From a virus, in the IMG/VR virus record IMGVR_UViG_3300022188_000052, positions 1 through 25,327 of that record: 25,327 nt of DNA; one strand, given 5' to 3'. The translations under genes and the position numbers were made by a program. Of the stretch, positions 7,041 to 13,738 are shown one piece after another. Positions within the stretch are counted from its first letter, which is position 1. Every line of letters begins with the position of its first letter. Under the pieces are notes generated by a model that did no database searches, was not told where the DNA came from, and worked only from the letters and a program-made list of their open reading frames with translations.

Positions 7041-7535
7041 TTACCCCCATATAATATATTCTGGCTCATACTCCCAGTTGCCTATTCTACCAGATTTGTA
7101 TGTTGTAAACTTGCCAGTCTGTGGTTCATACATATATAGACATGGTTCACCATTACTCTTCATTGCAACAAAAACATTCCAAGCATGATACCCTACATAT
7201 CCATTATCATCGGTTACCTTGCCAACTGCAATACCTACACTGTTTATCCCATAAACGTATGGTATTATCCCAGCAAACGTTATCGCAAAATTATCACAAT
7301 CATAATTCTCTACTCGGTATTCGTGCCACTTAACCATATCACCCTTGATTATTCTTAGCATTACCTCAAAATCCGTAAATTTATATATGCCATCCCAGAG
7401 TATGATATCCTGCACCGTGTCCCTACTTCTTAACATACTCAAAAGCTCAAATCCCTTTATCTCATATACACTCTTTACAATTACCCTTTGAAAAATTTTA
7501 ATAAAAAATCTAAGTAGAGCCTTCATTAGAAACAT
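7041..7535 (-). CDS. Transglutaminase-like Cys-His protein (peptidase or lysin candidate)
   Basis: 164 residues. The C-terminal 100 residues contain a Cys-His-Glu arrangement of the papain/transglutaminase-like fold: C80 in YDCDNF, H117 in GYHAWNVFV and E137 in YMYEPQTGKF. The N-terminus (FLMKALLRFFIKIFQRVIV) is hydrophobic and basic, so it may anchor to the membrane. Pseudomurein endoisopeptidases of methanogen viruses use a similar fold, but no pseudomurein-binding repeats are present. Placement between the radical SAM genes and an XhlA-like protein allows two readings: host envelope lysis, or proteolytic processing of the modified repeat proteins. The start is ambiguous between ATG at 7535 and 7526; it overlaps the preceding gene. 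Confidence 0.6.
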   Translation of the reverse strand: MFLMKALLRFFIKIFQRVIVKSVYEIKGFELLSMLRSRDTVQDIILWDGIYKFTDFEVMLRIIKGDMVKWHEYRVENYDCDNFAITFAGIIPYVYGINSVGIAVGKVTDDNGYVGYHAWNVFVAMKSNGEPCLYMYEPQTGKFTTYKSGRIGNWEYEPEYIIWG

Positions 7536-8091
7536 CTCTCCCCTTCTCCTTATTCACTGAACGAATTGCCTTGTTTGGGTAATCACAAATCTCTTCTCCA
7601 TTCTCAAGCTTCTTCCACACAATATCAACAAAGTGTCTACTCACTCCATATGCAGGTGGCTCAAGCTTCAAATACCTCTCTGCTCTACTAAGCAAATTCC
7701 TCAATACGTCATTCGCTTCCATTATTGTCAAGTATGAACTTACTATCGCTTTAATCGCATCAACCATAATATCCAAATCGAAGTTGTATCCCAATTCTTT
7801 GTTCCACAAACTTACTAAACTAACATACACTAAAACAAAATCAACTGCAAATTTCGAAAGTCTATGATATATTACAAACTCCATTACAGTTTTTGTTCCA
7901 TCAGTCACATTATTCATCATGTTCTGACCTACACCAGTTCTCCCACCCTTAGCAACTATATCCAAACTCTTTATCATGGTGTCTACCGCAACCTTAATAT
8001 TATTACCCTTTCCAAAATGTCTTCTAAACTCCTGAGAATTCAACATTCTCAATATCTTATTTCTAACATCTAAATACTCATTTCTGTCCAT
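7510..8091 (-). CDS. Helical protein of unknown function
   Basis: 193 residues, family not recognised. It is probably all-helical, with a mildly hydrophobic core (FAVDFVLVYVSLVSLW, then AIKAIVSSYLTIMEAND) and a charged C-terminus. A central GGRTGVGQNMMNNVTDG loop is Gly/Asn-rich. The ATG at 8091 has GGGGGTG upstream, and the radical SAM gene stop is 3 bases away, so the two are probably co-translated. It could serve the neighbouring radical SAM enzymes as a partner, or belong to the lysis set; neither can be shown from sequence. Confidence 0.55.
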   Translation of the reverse strand: MDRNEYLDVRNKILRMLNSQEFRRHFGKGNNIKVAVDTMIKSLDIVAKGGRTGVGQNMMNNVTDGTKTVMEFVIYHRLSKFAVDFVLVYVSLVSLWNKELGYNFDLDIMVDAIKAIVSSYLTIMEANDVLRNLLSRAERYLKLEPPAYGVSRHFVDIVWKKLENGEEICDYPNKAIRSVNKEKGRDVSNEGST

Positions 8092-8094
8092 ACA

Positions 8095-9414
8095 TTACAC
8101 CCCCAAAGCTTCCTCAATCCTTCTCCAAACTATCTGTCTTTCTAAACGTAATTCATTCACAATATCATCATATACACCAATATCCTTAGTTGCCTTTATT
8201 ATTCTCCTAATTTTCTCATGCTCTAACGCACATACCGTTGGTATCGGTGTAAATAAATCTCCAGTAAACTCATACTGTGCCCCAAGACAACCATGACTAC
8301 ATACCTCTTTAATTACACACTGTTCACAATATGGCTGGTTCTCTGCAACAAAGCTATATACTGCATTCAATAATTCTATATTCTTAGCTTCCACTCCTAC
8401 TATTTTATCATTCTCAGTCTTAAAATAACCATACACAAACTCATCGTAACTCGTTCTATGACAAGGCACTATCGCTAAATCTGACAATCTAACATACAAC
8501 ATTGCTTGAATACTACAACCCAATCCTCTACCAGTGCTACTAAATGGATTTAATATATTATACCCTCTCAATTTAAATGTGAAATTAACATATTTACGCA
8601 CATTCTCTCCAAGTCTATTTTTAAATGTCCACTTCACCAAGAAATCAATAAAATCCCCAAACTCCCTTATCTGTTCTCTCGTCCACTCTGGGTTTCTGAC
8701 CTCTAACAAATATATACTCCACCATGGTATTCCATGCTTATCGAACATGTTCTGAAACCATAAGAAATTCTTCTTCCACAAACCAATACCGTTTGCATAT
8801 ATCATAGGATGAAAACCAAATCCATACTTCTTGTTAAATTCAAACAATGTATCATACCAGTTATCATCTCTCGGGTCTTTCTCTGGATTACTAATTAGTG
8901 GTCTATTTATAGTTTCCAAATACTTACCATCTATACTGGCACTTAGAGCAAGTCTAACTCTACTTTTCTTTAAATATTCTTCCATCTTATCAGTCCAATA
9001 CTCGCTTAGCAAGAACGAATAATTACTCGGAACAACTACCGAAATCTCTTTAGCCCTATCTCCAAACACTTCTTCGATAGCGTCCAATATCCCATAAAAC
9101 TCTGACTTTACGGTAACTTCCCCACCAAATATATCAATGCCCTTTGGCACTACACCCTTTTCATAATACAACCACTCAAATAACATCTTAGCATTTTTAA
9201 CATACTCCTCGGGGTTCTTTAGCTTTACTGGATATAAATATTTATCATGTTTCGGGTTGTTATAGTAGCAATAGCGACATGCTAATGTGCACCTCGTATC
9301 CAACATTAGCTCTAACCTATCCCAGTTCGGAAATTTTTTCCCATATCCCTCAATAAACGTCTTTTCGATGAACATCTCCATAAACTTATCATTTTCTTCC
9401 TGAAACCTTACCAT
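8095..9414 (-). CDS. Radical SAM/SPASM peptide-modifying enzyme
   Basis: 439 residues. CTLACRYC (C42-x3-C46-x2-C49) binds the SAM-reducing 4Fe-4S cluster, and GIDIFGGEV matches the GGE motif that contacts SAM. The C-terminal SPASM domain has a full seven-Cys set (C300, C318, C363, C366, C372, C376, C395), including PCHR and CEQCVIKEVCSHGC, which in characterised members holds two auxiliary clusters. SPASM enzymes modify ribosomally made peptides or proteins (thioether or carbon-carbon links, formylglycine). A 30-residue N-terminal extension is polar and helical. The gene follows the second radical SAM gene directly (stop and ATG adjacent) and lies downstream of two repeat proteins that are candidate substrates. 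Confidence 0.85.
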   Translation of the reverse strand: MVRFQEENDKFMEMFIEKTFIEGYGKKFPNWDRLELMLDTRCTLACRYCYYNNPKHDKYLYPVKLKNPEEYVKNAKMLFEWLYYEKGVVPKGIDIFGGEVTVKSEFYGILDAIEEVFGDRAKEISVVVPSNYSFLLSEYWTDKMEEYLKKSRVRLALSASIDGKYLETINRPLISNPEKDPRDDNWYDTLFEFNKKYGFGFHPMIYANGIGLWKKNFLWFQNMFDKHGIPWWSIYLLEVRNPEWTREQIREFGDFIDFLVKWTFKNRLGENVRKYVNFTFKLRGYNILNPFSSTGRGLGCSIQAMLYVRLSDLAIVPCHRTSYDEFVYGYFKTENDKIVGVEAKNIELLNAVYSFVAENQPYCEQCVIKEVCSHGCLGAQYEFTGDLFTPIPTVCALEHEKIRRIIKATKDIGVYDDIVNELRLERQIVWRRIEEALGV

Positions 9415-10752
9415 TCACAACACCTTATTTCTCTTATACATCCTATACGTATCCCTTACTATCCACTCAAATGCACCATTACCCAAATACCTCAAAATAC
9501 TCACTGGGGTTAAGTGCACGCTACCAGTATTTAATAAATTTTCCATTGGACAACTAAATGCAGAATTAACAAAATATGCAAACAATAATGTGTAATCTTC
9601 ATCTTCCAAAAATCTTTTCTCTGCTTGTCCAGCCAGTGCCAACATCCTTATCATATTTACAGTATATCCAATTCGAAATCTCCAAAAATCATGATAACCA
9701 CGCATTACGTAATATACTCTCCACATCTCAAATTCATCATCATACGGAACTATGTAATATTTATTAATCTCTCTCAACCTTCCTTCCTCTATTACTGAAA
9801 CATCCCAGTTTTTATACTTATCCATACTCATTACCGCTTTGATATACTTATCTTTGTTGAAATAATACGTCCTATGACACAAATGAACCGCACCCTCATC
9901 ATCAAATCCAAATTGACTATCCATTGCAGAACATGTGAACATCCTCGCTTTATGTAACTCATGTGCCCAATCCAATAGCCTCATCAATCTATACGTATAA
10001 TTGTTCGGATAGCCAAATTTATACAAATACTCAAAAAACTTAGCCAATATTTTACCATCCTCACTCGTATATTTACCCGGAACTACCAACGTCCCACCTG
10101 CAAAACTCTTTATAATAACATTCTTCTTTTTATTCATACTTCTTAACTCACTAATTAAATTATCAAAAAATTCAAACACTTCATGTATCAACTCTGGATT
10201 TTCAACCATTTGTCTAATGTTATCAATACTCCACGTTGCCTTAAAACTAATCTCAAAATATGTATCAAAGTCAATTTTATTTAACTCATTAATCAACCAT
10301 TTCGTATTTTCAATAATTGTCTTCGTGCTCCCACCCTTTCTGTTTTTGTCGGTAATCCATTCACAACCATCTAAACTAATCTGATTTTTTATCGATATTC
10401 CTAAATCTTTTGCCTCTTTAACTTTCTCAACTACTGGGACAGGCTTTAACATCATACTTGTTGAATATACAAACGTCTTTAACTCTGGAAATTCTTTTTT
10501 CCATTCCCTTAAATCAATATATCTCATTGTCAATAAAGGTTCAGTTCCCCAAGCACCCAAATGTTCAAGTCTAATTCCATACTTCTTTTTCATTTCTTTC
10601 ATTTTTTCAATCCTATTTCTTGTCTTCAACTCTTTAATAATCTCCAAATGCAAATTCTTCATCTCTTCTGTCTTGGGGATGTAACAATAACTGCATTGAA
10701 GTTGGCACCATCCAGAGGTTAAAATTTCACTTGCTACCAACATACTCTTCAT
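9415..10752 (-). CDS. Radical SAM enzyme with reduced SPASM-like domain
   Basis: 445 residues. CQLQCSYC (C16-x3-C20-x2-C23) is the cluster motif, and GAWGTEP (69-72) replaces the usual GGEP. The C-terminal half has only three Cys (C274, C292 in HLCHRTYY, C401 in SCPMENL), too few for two auxiliary clusters, so it has at most one cluster (Twitch-like) or a degenerate SPASM fold. C292-H-R aligns with the PCHR of its neighbour, indicating common ancestry. The ATG at 10752 follows GGAGGTG. It is the first enzyme after the two tetrapeptide-repeat genes, 17 bases downstream of one of them. The pair may act in sequence or as a heterodimer on those proteins (inference). Confidence 0.8.
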   Translation of the reverse strand: MKSMLVASEILTSGWCQLQCSYCYIPKTEEMKNLHLEIIKELKTRNRIEKMKEMKKKYGIRLEHLGAWGTEPLLTMRYIDLREWKKEFPELKTFVYSTSMMLKPVPVVEKVKEAKDLGISIKNQISLDGCEWITDKNRKGGSTKTIIENTKWLINELNKIDFDTYFEISFKATWSIDNIRQMVENPELIHEVFEFFDNLISELRSMNKKKNVIIKSFAGGTLVVPGKYTSEDGKILAKFFEYLYKFGYPNNYTYRLMRLLDWAHELHKARMFTCSAMDSQFGFDDEGAVHLCHRTYYFNKDKYIKAVMSMDKYKNWDVSVIEEGRLREINKYYIVPYDDEFEMWRVYYVMRGYHDFWRFRIGYTVNMIRMLALAGQAEKRFLEDEDYTLLFAYFVNSAFSCPMENLLNTGSVHLTPVSILRYLGNGAFEWIVRDTYRMYKRNKVL

Positions 10753-10769
10753 ACCTTAGCACCTCCACA

Positions 10770-11615
10770 TCACACAAACCCACTATATTCAACCTTATTA
10801 TATGTGCCATTATGTGTTCCATCATCACCCGAATTATATGCACCATGCTCACTTGTCATATCAACATTATTTTCACCATTGTTATAATCCGAATCATAAC
10901 CTGAATTATACGTTCCATGCTCATTACTATCATATGTTCCATTATCGCCTTTATCTACACTACTATAATATACACCATCATCCGAACCACAATATGTCGA
11001 ATTCTCGCCACTTTTTACATTAACATCCTCATCACTATAATATGTTCCATAATCAGACTTATCAACATTGCTATAGTATGTTCCATATTCGCTACTATCC
11101 GCTGTTGCATCTTCACTATCACAATAACTCTCATTATCTGAACTATCATCATCGCTATAATAAGAAGTATTATCCTCTTTATCGTTCTCATAGTGTTGTG
11201 CACAATATGTAACATCCTCGGTGCTATTTACCTGAGCATAATCACCTTCATCGTTAGTATCATACACGGTGCTATCATTAGTTGCTAAATTTGACGCTTT
11301 TTCCAAATCATCAACCACACTACAATATGGGTTATCTTCACTCGAATTGTAACCACCATCGTCCCCATCATATACAGTTACGTTATATGAAGTATCATCT
11401 CCCGAATTATATGAATCACAATATGACGCTTGAGCTGAACCCAAATCTGATAAATAATTATCAAGATATGCAAACGAATGTTCATGCTTATTATAATCAG
11501 AGTAATTTGCAACACATTTCGTGTCATCAATATTGTCTACATTACCTCGCATCTCATCAATATGCCTCTTCTGTATCAAATCCCCTCTGTTCAAAGTAGA
11601 CCACACAAATGACAC
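10770..11615 (-). CDS. Tetrapeptide-repeat acidic virion protein B (radical SAM substrate candidate)
   Basis: 281 residues. The N-terminus (MSFVWSTLNRGDLIQKRHID) is a phage tail-appendage anchor motif and is paralogous to the upstream gene. From residue 35 to the last residue the chain is four-residue units: 28 units (35-146), one 3-residue slip (147-149), then 33 units (150-281). The unit is about [S/G/K][T/S/G/N][Y/D/E/V][D/N/Y/H], for example GTYY, SDYN, SGYD. All six Cys (34, 66, 98, 138, 165, 209) fall on the last unit position, five as Tyr-Cys; the first three are exactly 32 residues apart. Net charge is very negative. GTG at 11615 is chosen for the GGGGTGA 5 bases upstream. Probably a fibre; modification by the downstream enzymes is inferred. 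Confidence 0.7.
   Translation of the reverse strand: MSFVWSTLNRGDLIQKRHIDEMRGNVDNIDDTKCVANYSDYNKHEHSFAYLDNYLSDLGSAQASYCDSYNSGDDTSYNVTVYDGDDGGYNSSEDNPYCSVVDDLEKASNLATNDSTVYDTNDEGDYAQVNSTEDVTYCAQHYENDKEDNTSYYSDDDSSDNESYCDSEDATADSSEYGTYYSNVDKSDYGTYYSDEDVNVKSGENSTYCGSDDGVYYSSVDKGDNGTYDSNEHGTYNSGYDSDYNNGENNVDMTSEHGAYNSGDDGTHNGTYNKVEYSGFV
10773..11513 (-). repeat. Repeat-coding tract, 12-base units (protein B)
   Basis: Sixty-one tetrapeptide units encoded by degenerate 12-base units, rich in NAT codons (Tyr, Asp, Asn, His) at unit positions 3 and 4. The DNA repeats are diverged, and only short near-identical blocks remain (for example around 10832 and 10901), so the periodicity is preserved mainly at protein level. 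Confidence 0.8.
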
Positions 11616-11626
11616 ATTAATCACCC

Positions 11627-12700
11627 CTAATGACCATCATATACTGTCCCATCATCTGTTCCATCGTATCCAGAATCATATGTTCCATCATCACCTGAAT
11701 TATATACATCGTTGTATCCAGAATCATAGGGATTATCTTCGTTATAGTTATAAGAACTATCATATCCATAATCATAAGAACTATCGTATCCACTATCATC
11801 GCCACTGCATGTGCCCGCAACCGAATTCTCATCACTAAAATTAGTATCATAATCACCAGATAAATTAGTGGAATTTTCACCAGAATTATAAGTGCTATCG
11901 TCATTTGCATAGTATGTTCCATAAAATGAACTATCATCTGATACGCCATAATCAATATGTTCCGTTGCAAAATGAACATCACAAACATTTGTATCGTGTC
12001 CACTATCATCTCCTACATAATAACCCGAATTATATCCACTATCCACACCAGAGTTATCAGCAGATTTCTCACCGCCATAATACGTAGAATTCTCAGCATC
12101 ATAAACCGTTCCACAATATGAAAAATTGTGCCCATCATCATCATCACTATTGTGTCCACTATATGCGGATGAATCATCCCCACTGCAAGCACCATCTGCA
12201 CTATATACCGAGCTATCCTCACCATCATTAGCAGTATAATATTCTGAACTATCATCCATTCCATCGTGTTCACTATTAACATCAGAGTCGTAACCCGAAT
12301 TCACAATATTGTCCACCGTGTCATCGTTTCCCGACAACTCATTATTATTATATGTATCATTATATCCAGTATCCTCGGTTGTATTATCAACCGAATTTGC
12401 AGAACTATAATCAGTTGAACAATACCCATCCTTCGCTAATGGACAAGCGGCTTCATTCTCATAAGAGTTAAACGAACTACAATCATTACACTTTATTGTA
12501 TCCAAATCATCAATAGACCGCCTCAATGCGACAAGTCTCACATACTCATACATATGAAGGCGTTTTGCAAACTCATTATAATCCCAATTTAGTCCTTTAT
12601 CCAAATCATTAAGTATATTATCCATATTACTCTTAATCTCATCAATATCATCTTTCTTTGGTATATCACCTCTGTTCAAATTTGACCAAGTAAACCCCAT
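11627..12700 (-). CDS. Tetrapeptide-repeat acidic virion protein A (radical SAM substrate candidate)
   Basis: 357 residues. N-terminal anchor MGFTWSNLNRGDIPKKDDID is followed by a helix to about residue 70. From 75 to 354 the protein is tetrapeptide units such as SGYD, GTYY, STYN, SGDD. The register is broken only by two hexads, SADGAC (167-172) and SVAGTC (293-298), both followed by SGDD and separated by exactly 30 units. Seven of eight Cys (74, 86, 94, 172, 196, 240, 298) end a unit; only C71 does not. After residue 100 there is one Lys and no Arg. The ATG at 12700 follows GAGGTG. It is paralogous to protein B, and precedes two radical SAM genes in the same operon. It is likely a tail fibre; N-glycosylation is an alternative modification, since several N-x-S/T sites exist. 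Confidence 0.7.
   Translation of the reverse strand: MGFTWSNLNRGDIPKKDDIDEIKSNMDNILNDLDKGLNWDYNEFAKRLHMYEYVRLVALRRSIDDLDTIKCNDCSSFNSYENEAACPLAKDGYCSTDYSSANSVDNTTEDTGYNDTYNNNELSGNDDTVDNIVNSGYDSDVNSEHDGMDDSSEYYTANDGEDSSVYSADGACSGDDSSAYSGHNSDDDDGHNFSYCGTVYDAENSTYYGGEKSADNSGVDSGYNSGYYVGDDSGHDTNVCDVHFATEHIDYGVSDDSSFYGTYYANDDSTYNSGENSTNLSGDYDTNFSDENSVAGTCSGDDSGYDSSYDYGYDSSYNYNEDNPYDSGYNDVYNSGDDGTYDSGYDGTDDGTVYDGH
11639..12478 (-). repeat. Repeat-coding tract, 12-base units (protein A)
   Basis: About 69 tetrapeptide units in three register blocks (residues 75-166, 173-292, 299-354), joined by two six-residue units ending in Cys. The coding DNA is diverged between units, which argues that the four-residue period is maintained by selection on the protein and is not recent slippage. 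Confidence 0.8.
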
Positions 12701-12712
12701 TATTACACACCT

Positions 12713-13738
12713 CTATACATATACTGGCAATAGTCCAGCAAACTTACTTACTTTCAAATATCTTACCCTATGCTCATTATTCGAAGCACTCGTCCTTGCA
12801 CCAATTCCCATTAACATTCCACTTAAATCCCTTTGTATATCGGTGAAGTCTAACTGTAATACCCCATCAACCCACACTCTAATTCTCCTTTTTTCAAAAA
12901 CAACAAAAACTTTATGCCATTGCCCATCATCAATCTGATACGTCGGCGTAGCGTATGCAAGCTTACTACCATTATATAATACCTGAACCTCTCCATCACC
13001 CTCATCCAGAGCAATAACATATCCACCAGTCGCACTATCCTCACTTATAGGCGTCTCCTCACAATATACATACAGATATATCGCATTAGCACCATCACCA
13101 AGTCCAGCATAATACTCAAACTCAGCAAACCAAGATGACATCGGATTTATCTGATACTCCAATTGACCATTTTGATTATCAACTGCCTCAGTCAATACTA
13201 AATAGTCATTATCGCTATCATAATATGAATCTCCTTTCAACGTTCCACTCGGACTTACCTTAAAATCCTCATATACCATTAATGGGTCAAACATAAAATT
13301 ACCAACACCACTCACTCTAATATCCTTAATATCATCACTAACAAAACTCGATACGCCATCATCTACCACAACTAATGCCAAAGGAATATCATCATCCTCT
13401 GGTCTTGGGAATACTGGTATCTCAACATCACCGATTACTGCATACCCACTACCTTGTCTAACGACAACACCTTTAGTTCCATAGTTCCATACTATCAAAT
13501 CCCCTCTTACATGCCCACTACTATTAGAAGATATTGAAACAGTAATCGAAGAAACATCATGAAACTCACCAGCATAATAAACAATACCAGAATTTACAAT
13601 TAAATCAAGTCCACTACTCGGAACAACATCACAACCATTTACTACATATCTACCTCTAATAGCCTGTAATAGCGACAATATGTGCCCACTATATAACGGG
13701 TCACCATCATTAATACTCTTCATCCAATCCAACGTCAT
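12713..13738 (-). CDS. Tail fibre/adhesin with C-terminal lectin-like domain
   Basis: 341 residues. It begins with a short W-x4-N-x-GD anchor (DWMKSINDGDPLYSG), comparable with the two following repeat proteins. Residues about 35-150 match the usual phage appendage N-domain (VNSGIVYYAG, RGDLIVWNYG, then PRPEDDDIPLALVVV and IKDIRV). Residues about 160-335 look like a concanavalin/L-type lectin jelly roll, with GGYVIALDEGDGEVQVLYNG, WHKVFVVFEKRRIRVWVDG and DLSGMLMGIGA. It would bind host surface glycans as a receptor-binding protein. The ATG at 13738 has GGTGAT upstream; the gap from the previous gene is 5 bases. Confidence 0.75.
   Translation of the reverse strand: MTLDWMKSINDGDPLYSGHILSLLQAIRGRYVVNGCDVVPSSGLDLIVNSGIVYYAGEFHDVSSITVSISSNSSGHVRGDLIVWNYGTKGVVVRQGSGYAVIGDVEIPVFPRPEDDDIPLALVVVDDGVSSFVSDDIKDIRVSGVGNFMFDPLMVYEDFKVSPSGTLKGDSYYDSDNDYLVLTEAVDNQNGQLEYQINPMSSWFAEFEYYAGLGDGANAIYLYVYCEETPISEDSATGGYVIALDEGDGEVQVLYNGSKLAYATPTYQIDDGQWHKVFVVFEKRRIRVWVDGVLQLDFTDIQRDLSGMLMGIGARTSASNNEHRVRYLKVSKFAGLLPVYV

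What the first reader, a model, noticed from the sequence alone, without database searches (positions are those of the whole stretch)
8095..12700. Two tetrapeptide-repeat virion proteins in one operon with two radical SAM proteins: a possible radical-modified viral fibre
The sequence shows two paralogous proteins with a tail-anchor N-terminus and long Tyr/Asp/Cys-rich repeats, followed without a gap by two radical SAM proteins, one with a full seven-Cys SPASM domain. SPASM enzymes are known to act on ribosomally made peptides next to which they are encoded (established for RiPP pathways). A structural virus protein with 60-70 repeated acceptor sites would be an unusual substrate. Cys residues in a fixed register, many as Tyr-Cys, could be sites for thioether or aryl cross-links, giving a heat-stable fibre. 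The enzyme-substrate link is inferred from gene order only.
Basis: partly seen in the sequence, partly recalled or inferred. Interest (0 to 1): 0.92.

Follow-up and report, generated by a model that had tools for sequence, protein, structure and literature searches.

The report
Viral repeat proteins with radical-SAM pair
A tailed virus, probably of an archaeon, carries in its tail-gene block two long Tyr/Asp-rich four-residue-repeat proteins followed at once by two enzymes of the radical-SAM peptide-modifying type; a sister virus has the same set and other relatives lack all of it, so the virus may chemically modify its own tail appendage, though no modification has been shown.

Summary
The genes are real. 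Repeat proteins A (357 aa) and B (284 aa) are followed by rSAM1 (445 aa) and rSAM2 (439 aa, full seven-Cys SPASM), in an operon downstream of the tape measure, hub and a LamG-type tail protein. The four-residue periodicity is strong (z 5-10.5), consensus [GTS]-[YDEVH]-[DNYC]-[SG]. All 14 array cysteines in the two viruses sit at position 3. The co-occurrence test was run: one sister virus has LamG-A-B-rSAM1-rSAM2-p193 in the same order; five other lineages of this virus group lack A, B and both enzymes. rSAM1 and rSAM2 are the most constrained proteins compared (dN/dS about 0.08). Both score best, far below cut-off, against peptide-maturase models, PapB above all.

Corrections: each array holds only 4-5 Cys, so Cys cannot be 60-70 acceptor sites. 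Cys-X3-Asp is not enriched. The 'tail anchor' has no significant homologue, so virion status rests on gene position. The sister's rSAM1 carries a 7-bp frameshifting duplication. No close relative of rSAM2 was found in about 860 archaeal genomes.

Best reading: a virus-encoded maturation cassette acting on A and/or B; modest confidence, chemistry unknown. The two carriers may reflect a single gain.

The parts
12713..13738 (-). LamG-type tail protein (341 aa), upstream neighbour of the cassette
   Evidence: Pfam Laminin_G_3 E 3.9e-7 and related; 81% identical in the sister virus; N-terminal 145 aa 31% identical to a 782-aa protein at the same place in G421
11627..12700 (-). Repeat protein A (357 aa): helical N-terminal segment plus about 65 tetrapeptide units
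   Evidence: sister orthologue 63% identical
11630..12415 (-). Tetrapeptide array of A (residues 96-357), consensus [GTS]-[YDEVH]-[DNYC]-[SG], 4 Cys all at position 3
   Evidence: periodicity z 10.5, 0 of 2000 shuffles
10770..11624 (-). Repeat protein B (284 aa), paralogue of A
   Evidence: sister orthologue 60% identical
10773..11426 (-). Tetrapeptide array of B (residues 67-284), 5 Cys, all as Tyr-Cys at position 3
   Evidence: periodicity z 6.9, 0 of 2000 shuffles
9415..10752 (-). rSAM1 (445 aa): radical-SAM enzyme with a reduced auxiliary-cluster domain
   Evidence: Pfam PF04055 35.9 bits, over cut-off; best NCBIfam PapB E 1.3e-9, below cut-off
10684..10707 (-). CX3CX2C motif of rSAM1 (C16, C20, C23)
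8095..9414 (-). rSAM2 (439 aa): radical-SAM/SPASM enzyme
   Evidence: best NCBIfam PapB E 5.9e-13 (48.7 bits, cut-off 340); SPASM domain TIGR04085 28.8 bits, over its cut-off of 27
9268..9291 (-). CX3CX2C motif of rSAM2 (C42, C46, C49)
8230..8517 (-). Seven-Cys SPASM region of rSAM2 (C300 to C395)
   Evidence: all seven Cys conserved in the sister virus
7510..8091 (-). p193, predicted all-helical protein of unknown function, present only where the cassette is present
   Evidence: no PDB fold match at E <= 0.001

Best explanation
The block A-B-rSAM1-rSAM2 (probably with p193) is a virus-encoded maturation cassette placed between the LamG-type tail protein and the papain-like protein of a tailed virus related to the archaeal HVTV/HCTV group. 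A and B are most likely long, very acidic appendages at the tail tip. Before or during tail assembly the helical N-terminal segment would serve as the enzymes' handle, and rSAM2 (full SPASM), helped or followed by rSAM1, would install radical-chemistry bonds at positions 2-3 of some tetrapeptide units, where Tyr, Asp, Asn and the few Cys sit. Shown: gene order, periodicity, enzyme motifs, strong constraint on the enzymes, presence or absence as a block. Inferred: that A and B are virion parts, that they are the substrates, and the role (stiffening or protecting the appendage, or altering its binding surface). The chemistry is open; a Cys-to-Asp/Glu thioether at the few Cys is the best-precedented option.
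For: Same genes, same order in the sister virus. A, B, rSAM1, rSAM2 and p193 are absent together from G421, which has the LamG-type tail protein, papain-like protein, MPE and portal around an otherwise different slot, and from L132/L134, L136 and L137; A, B and the enzymes were not found in any other of about 85 related viral loci and rSAM2 in no other of 48 whole records. rSAM1 and rSAM2 have the lowest dN/dS of the genes compared (0.079, 0.076). The best models of both enzymes are peptide or protein maturases: PapB, QhpD, HxsB, SCIFF, CXXX-repeat target. Precedents: TvgB acts on TVGG tetrapeptide repeats (PMC9062424), PapB joins Cys to Asp/Glu in CXnD with n = 0-6 (PMC9413430), QhpD joins Cys to Asp/Glu in an enzyme subunit encoded in its operon (PMC7876137).
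Against: Two carriers may be one gain, so block inheritance says little about function. No virion or modification data. The N-terminal segment has no significant homologue. CX3[DE] is not enriched and Cys are few. No RiPP recognition element was detected by family scans in the enzymes or p193, and p193 is predicted all-helical. The sister's rSAM1 is frameshifted by a 7-bp duplication, which if real suggests rSAM1 is dispensable there.
Confidence: 0.5

Rival explanations
1. The enzymes act on something else: a host peptide or surface component, a small molecule, or another viral protein (LamG protein, p193, hub). The repeat proteins are unmodified adhesive tail proteins that share the operon and were acquired with them.
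For: The substrate link is gene order and joint presence only; arrays drift (60-63% identity) while the enzymes stay at 88-89%; radical-SAM genes unlinked to fibre genes exist in Campylobacter phages (PMC3322345).
Against: Enzymes and arrays are adjacent, with 17 bp and 0 bp between genes, inside a structural block, and no other gene is confined to the carriers except p193 and the close LamG form.
Confidence: 0.3
2. A and B are not tail parts but secreted or intracellular acidic proteins, for example RiPP-like precursors or decoys, made late and modified by the two enzymes.
For: No virion homology; net charge -67 and -50; N-terminal segment plus variable repeats resembles leader plus core.
Against: Position directly behind the tail genes in both viruses; no transporter or processing gene specific to the carriers was recognised.
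Confidence: 0.14
3. rSAM1 and rSAM2 are viperin-like or counter-defence enzymes.
For: Weak match of both to the prokaryotic viperin model pVip, E 6-8e-5, confined to the radical-SAM core.
Against: Such a match is expected for any radical-SAM core; the SPASM domain and peptide-maturase models score better; late tail operon.
Confidence: 0.06

Closest known systems
PapB/PapA ranthipeptide system (freyrasin)
   Same: Best NCBIfam model of both enzymes; substrate with several Cys and Asp, maturase encoded beside it
   Different: Scores 48.7 and 37.8 bits against a cut-off of 340; CX3D not enriched here; the proteins here are 284-357 aa and viral
QhpD, quinohemoprotein amine dehydrogenase maturase
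   Same: Distant match of rSAM2 (E 6.9e-9); acts on a protein subunit encoded in its operon, not on a small secreted peptide (PMC7876137)
   Different: Single host-enzyme substrate with a leader; no repeats; rSAM2 far below the model cut-off
TvgA/TvgB (TVGG tetrapeptide repeats, cyclopropylglycine)
   Same: Radical-SAM enzyme modifying a tetrapeptide-repeat substrate at each unit (PMC9062424)
   Different: TVGG unit with Val as target; here Val is only one of several residues at position 2; relationship of the enzymes not tested
HxsA/HxsB/HxsC (His-Xaa-Ser repeats with two paired radical-SAM enzymes)
   Same: Two radical-SAM enzymes beside a repeat protein; rSAM2 matches HxsB at E 2.5e-8
   Different: Tripeptide His-X-Ser repeats are absent here; score far below cut-off
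Radical-SAM proteins of Campylobacter phages (CP220 group)
   Same: Distant relatives of rSAM2 in tailed phages (22-23% identity, E about 1e-4)
   Different: In the one region inspected the gene lies beside a DNA-polymerase clamp-loader gene and no repeat or fibre gene is annotated next to it

Membership tests
Radical-SAM superfamily | CX3CX2C cluster motif and Pfam PF04055 | tested here: met
   rSAM1 35.9 bits, over cut-off; rSAM2 21.2 bits, below the cut-off of 29.5 but with the motif and a SPASM domain
SPASM-domain enzymes | TIGR04085 and seven auxiliary-cluster Cys | tested here: met
   rSAM2: 28.8 bits, cut-off 27; seven Cys present and conserved. rSAM1: only three further conserved Cys, so not met for rSAM1
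PapB ranthipeptide maturases | NF047865 score above cut-off | tested here: not met
   48.7 and 37.8 bits against 340
PapB ranthipeptide maturases | Substrate with repeated Cys-X3-Asp/Glu | tested here: not met
   A 2 of 4, B 3 of 5 array Cys; not above register-preserving shuffles (p 0.48, 0.17)
RiPP pathway | Precursor encoded beside its modifying enzyme | tested here: met
   Adjacent in both carriers; that A/B are precursors is an inference
RiPP pathway | RiPP recognition element | tested here: not met
   No PqqD-like or other such domain in family scans of rSAM1, rSAM2 or p193; some radical-SAM pathways lack a detectable one
RiPP pathway | Post-translational modification of the precursor | not testable with these tools
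   Needs mass spectrometry
Archaeal tailed viruses (HVTV/HCTV-like Caudoviricetes) | Homologous portal and major head protein | tested here: met
   Portal 25-26% identical to HCTV-1, HCTV-5 and HVTV-1, E about 1e-33; PHROG head and portal families
Tail fibre or virion structural proteins (A and B) | Homology to known tail proteins | tested here: not met
   No significant family match; best phrog_21048 E 0.011, unknown function; no profile match to the LamG tail protein
Tail fibre or virion structural proteins (A and B) | Presence in virions | not testable with these tools
   Needs virion proteomics

The most novel reading that the evidence does not exclude
A virus builds a tail appendage from ribosomally made tetrapeptide-repeat proteins and converts it with two of its own radical-SAM enzymes into a heavily modified or cross-linked fibre, by a chemistry on Tyr/Asp/Asn/Cys tetrads that is not yet described: RiPP-type chemistry used for virion architecture.
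Probability: 0.3. Interest if true: 0.92.

Novelty: new variant of a known kind. Interest (0 to 1): 0.72.

Why it matters
Peptide-maturing radical-SAM enzymes are known from bacterial and archaeal peptide pathways and a few enzyme subunits. A virus that uses them on its own tail appendage would be a new use of this chemistry and a new kind of virion protein modification. Full-text searches of the held library (partial: open-licence papers only) found no virus-encoded example. The set is small, four or five genes, so it can be tested directly by co-expression and mass spectrometry.

Tried and rejected
(1) Cys thioether bridges as the main event: rejected as stated, because the arrays have 4-5 Cys each and CX3[DE] is not enriched over register-preserving shuffles. 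(2) Recent recombination of the cassette, suggested by its high identity: four-fold-site identities overlap between cassette genes (0.40-0.68) and the other genes (0.41-0.57), so not claimed. (3) Repeats elsewhere: a DNA pattern for the array in IMG/VR gave none, but it fixes some codons and would miss diverged arrays; a composition and period scan of the fetched viral loci turned up no array-type protein outside the window and the sister. rSAM2 then gave 0 of 398 genomes in the phylum of a Metallosphaera genome, 0 of 345 in that of a Methanolliviera genome, and 10 of 115 weak matches (21-28% identity) in that of a Thermococcus genome; the first two had no positive control within them. rSAM1 was not searched in these genomes. 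(5) Structure: AlphaFold of A gives only N-terminal helices, array pLDDT about 25-30; p193 has no PDB fold match at E <= 0.001. (6) Radical-SAM genes in other relatives: QueE-like, NrdG-like or other proteins, not this pair. (7) Viperin or defence: core-level match only. (8) Campylobacter phage radical-SAM neighbourhood: no repeat or fibre gene annotated beside it. (9) Solved-structure profile search with the rSAM2 pair: nothing at E <= 0.01.
Full report
WHAT IS THERE. The window is a 25,327-bp IMG/VR virus record. Its late genes run on the minus strand: tape measure, hub, a LamG-type tail protein, repeat proteins A and B, rSAM1, rSAM2, p193, a papain-like protein (my reading of the Lectin_C_term match), a metallophosphoesterase, portal and major head protein. 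The portal matches archaeal tailed viruses: haloviruses HCTV-1/HCTV-5/HVTV-1 at E about 1e-33 and a Methanomassiliicoccales virus at 6e-19. The host is not known, and I found no evidence on temperature.

THE REPEATS. A and B (34% identical to each other) have a four-residue period. Mean self-identity at lags 4, 8, 12 and 16 is 0.216 for A and 0.175 for B against 0.115 and 0.103 in shuffles, with none of 2000 shuffles as high; the sister orthologues behave alike. A four-state register model gives position 1 G/T/S, position 2 Y/D/E/V/H, position 3 D/N/Y/C, position 4 S/G, with one or two breaks per array. All 14 Cys of the four arrays fall at position 3. In B every array Cys follows Tyr. Cys-X3-Asp/Glu pairs occur, but no more often than the register gives by chance. 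Both proteins are very acidic (net -67 and -50). AlphaFold predicts helices in the N-terminal segment of A (residues 16-68, pLDDT about 55-71) and nothing in the array; with four sequences in the alignment this says little.

THE ENZYMES. rSAM2 has the radical-SAM motif and a complete seven-Cys SPASM domain; rSAM1 has the motif and a reduced auxiliary domain. Both find NF047865 (PapB) as best NCBIfam model, well below its cut-off, with QhpD, HxsB, SCIFF and other maturase models behind it. The sister proteins give the same picture, with CefB (Cys-every-fifth) just ahead of PapB for rSAM1. They are therefore of peptide- or protein-modifying type, but not members of a named family.

THE SISTER VIRUS. 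One IMG/VR contig, IMGVR_UViG_3300005099_000473 (57,952 bp), has the same genes in the same order. Identity: rSAM1 89% (5' part), rSAM2 88%, LamG protein 81%, p193 74%, papain-like 66%, A 63%, B 60%, MCP 49%, portal 48%. dN/dS (Nei-Gojobori, one pair, synonymous sites near saturation) is lowest for the two enzymes, 0.076-0.079, against 0.21-0.25 for A and B and 0.26-0.31 for portal and MCP. So the enzymes are strongly constrained while the arrays drift and gain or lose stretches. In A all seven aligned Cys are kept; in B three of five. The sister's rSAM1 is interrupted by a 7-bp tandem duplication; the part behind it is still 87% identical to the window's, so the break is recent or an assembly error.

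THE CO-OCCURRENCE TEST. Scans with portal and MCP alignments brought in about 85 related viral loci. Against these, tblastn finds A, B, rSAM1, rSAM2, p193 and the close LamG form only in the window and the sister. Searches of 48 whole records find rSAM2 only in the sister; other radical-SAM genes are QueE-like, NrdG-like or other proteins. Records are fragments, so absence is judged mainly where the slot is in view. G421 has the hub, a 782-aa protein homologous to the LamG tail protein, then unrelated genes, papain-like protein and MPE, with portal and MCP following. L132/L134 (one lineage), L136 (G417) and L137 (G418) have the hub or tail-to-portal region without the cassette. G419 (60.5 kb) has hub next to MPE and portal and no radical-SAM gene. 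The limit is that two carriers may stem from one gain.

INTERPRETATION. The simplest reading is a small maturation cassette attached to the tail-tip locus. Shown: periodic arrays, intact enzyme motifs in the window, constraint, block-wise presence. Inferred: virion location, substrate relation, function. The N-terminal 'anchor' is not supported by homology. The idea of 60-70 Cys acceptor sites is wrong in number; if each unit is a target, the target must be Tyr, Asp, Asn or another common residue. Published tetrad motifs I compared (CX3D of PapB, Aro-X-X-Asn and TVGG in PMC9062424) do not describe this register. Precedents for parts of the scheme: TvgB on TVGG repeats (PMC9062424), PapB on CXnD (PMC9413430), QhpD on an enzyme subunit in its operon (PMC7876137). 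The main rival is that the enzymes serve another substrate.

NOVELTY. Enzyme type and genetic logic are known; their use by a virus beside long acidic tetrapeptide proteins was not found in the held literature. I rate it a new variant of a known kind, with interest 0.72: surprising and directly testable, but with enzyme-substrate link and virion status unproven.

Noticed in passing
L004 2964-4311 (IMGVR_UViG_3300005099_000473): The sister virus's rSAM1 is split by a 7-bp tandem duplication (frameshift) although both halves remain 87-89% identical to the window's protein.
   Followed up: partly
G001 32097-39656 (L011/L012): The sister virus carries what read as 7-deazaguanine pathway genes: QueE-like radical-SAM, QueD-like, FolE-like and QueC-like proteins and tRNA-guanine transglycosylase-like proteins; QueE-like genes recur in other related records. 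Assigned by eye, not by profile.
   Followed up: partly
L004 9058-10314; L136 2-1081; L137 11794-13038: An ATP-grasp-like protein (by eye) lies near the portal in the sister virus and in two other lineages but not in the window.
   Followed up: no
window 7041-7535: Protein matching the C-terminal domain of the Marasmius-type lectin (Pfam Lectin_C_term, E 6.8e-8), conserved in several related viruses beside the tail genes.
   Followed up: partly
window 11627-12282, other minus-strand frames: Because of the 12-base periodicity, alternative frames inside the arrays are open for 89-130 codons and appear as ORFs; they are most likely artefacts of composition.
   Followed up: no
window 8095-9414: The only relatives of rSAM2 in the GenBank phage collection are in Campylobacter phages (22-23% identity), which are reported to carry six radical-SAM genes of unknown role (PMC3322345).
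   Followed up: partly
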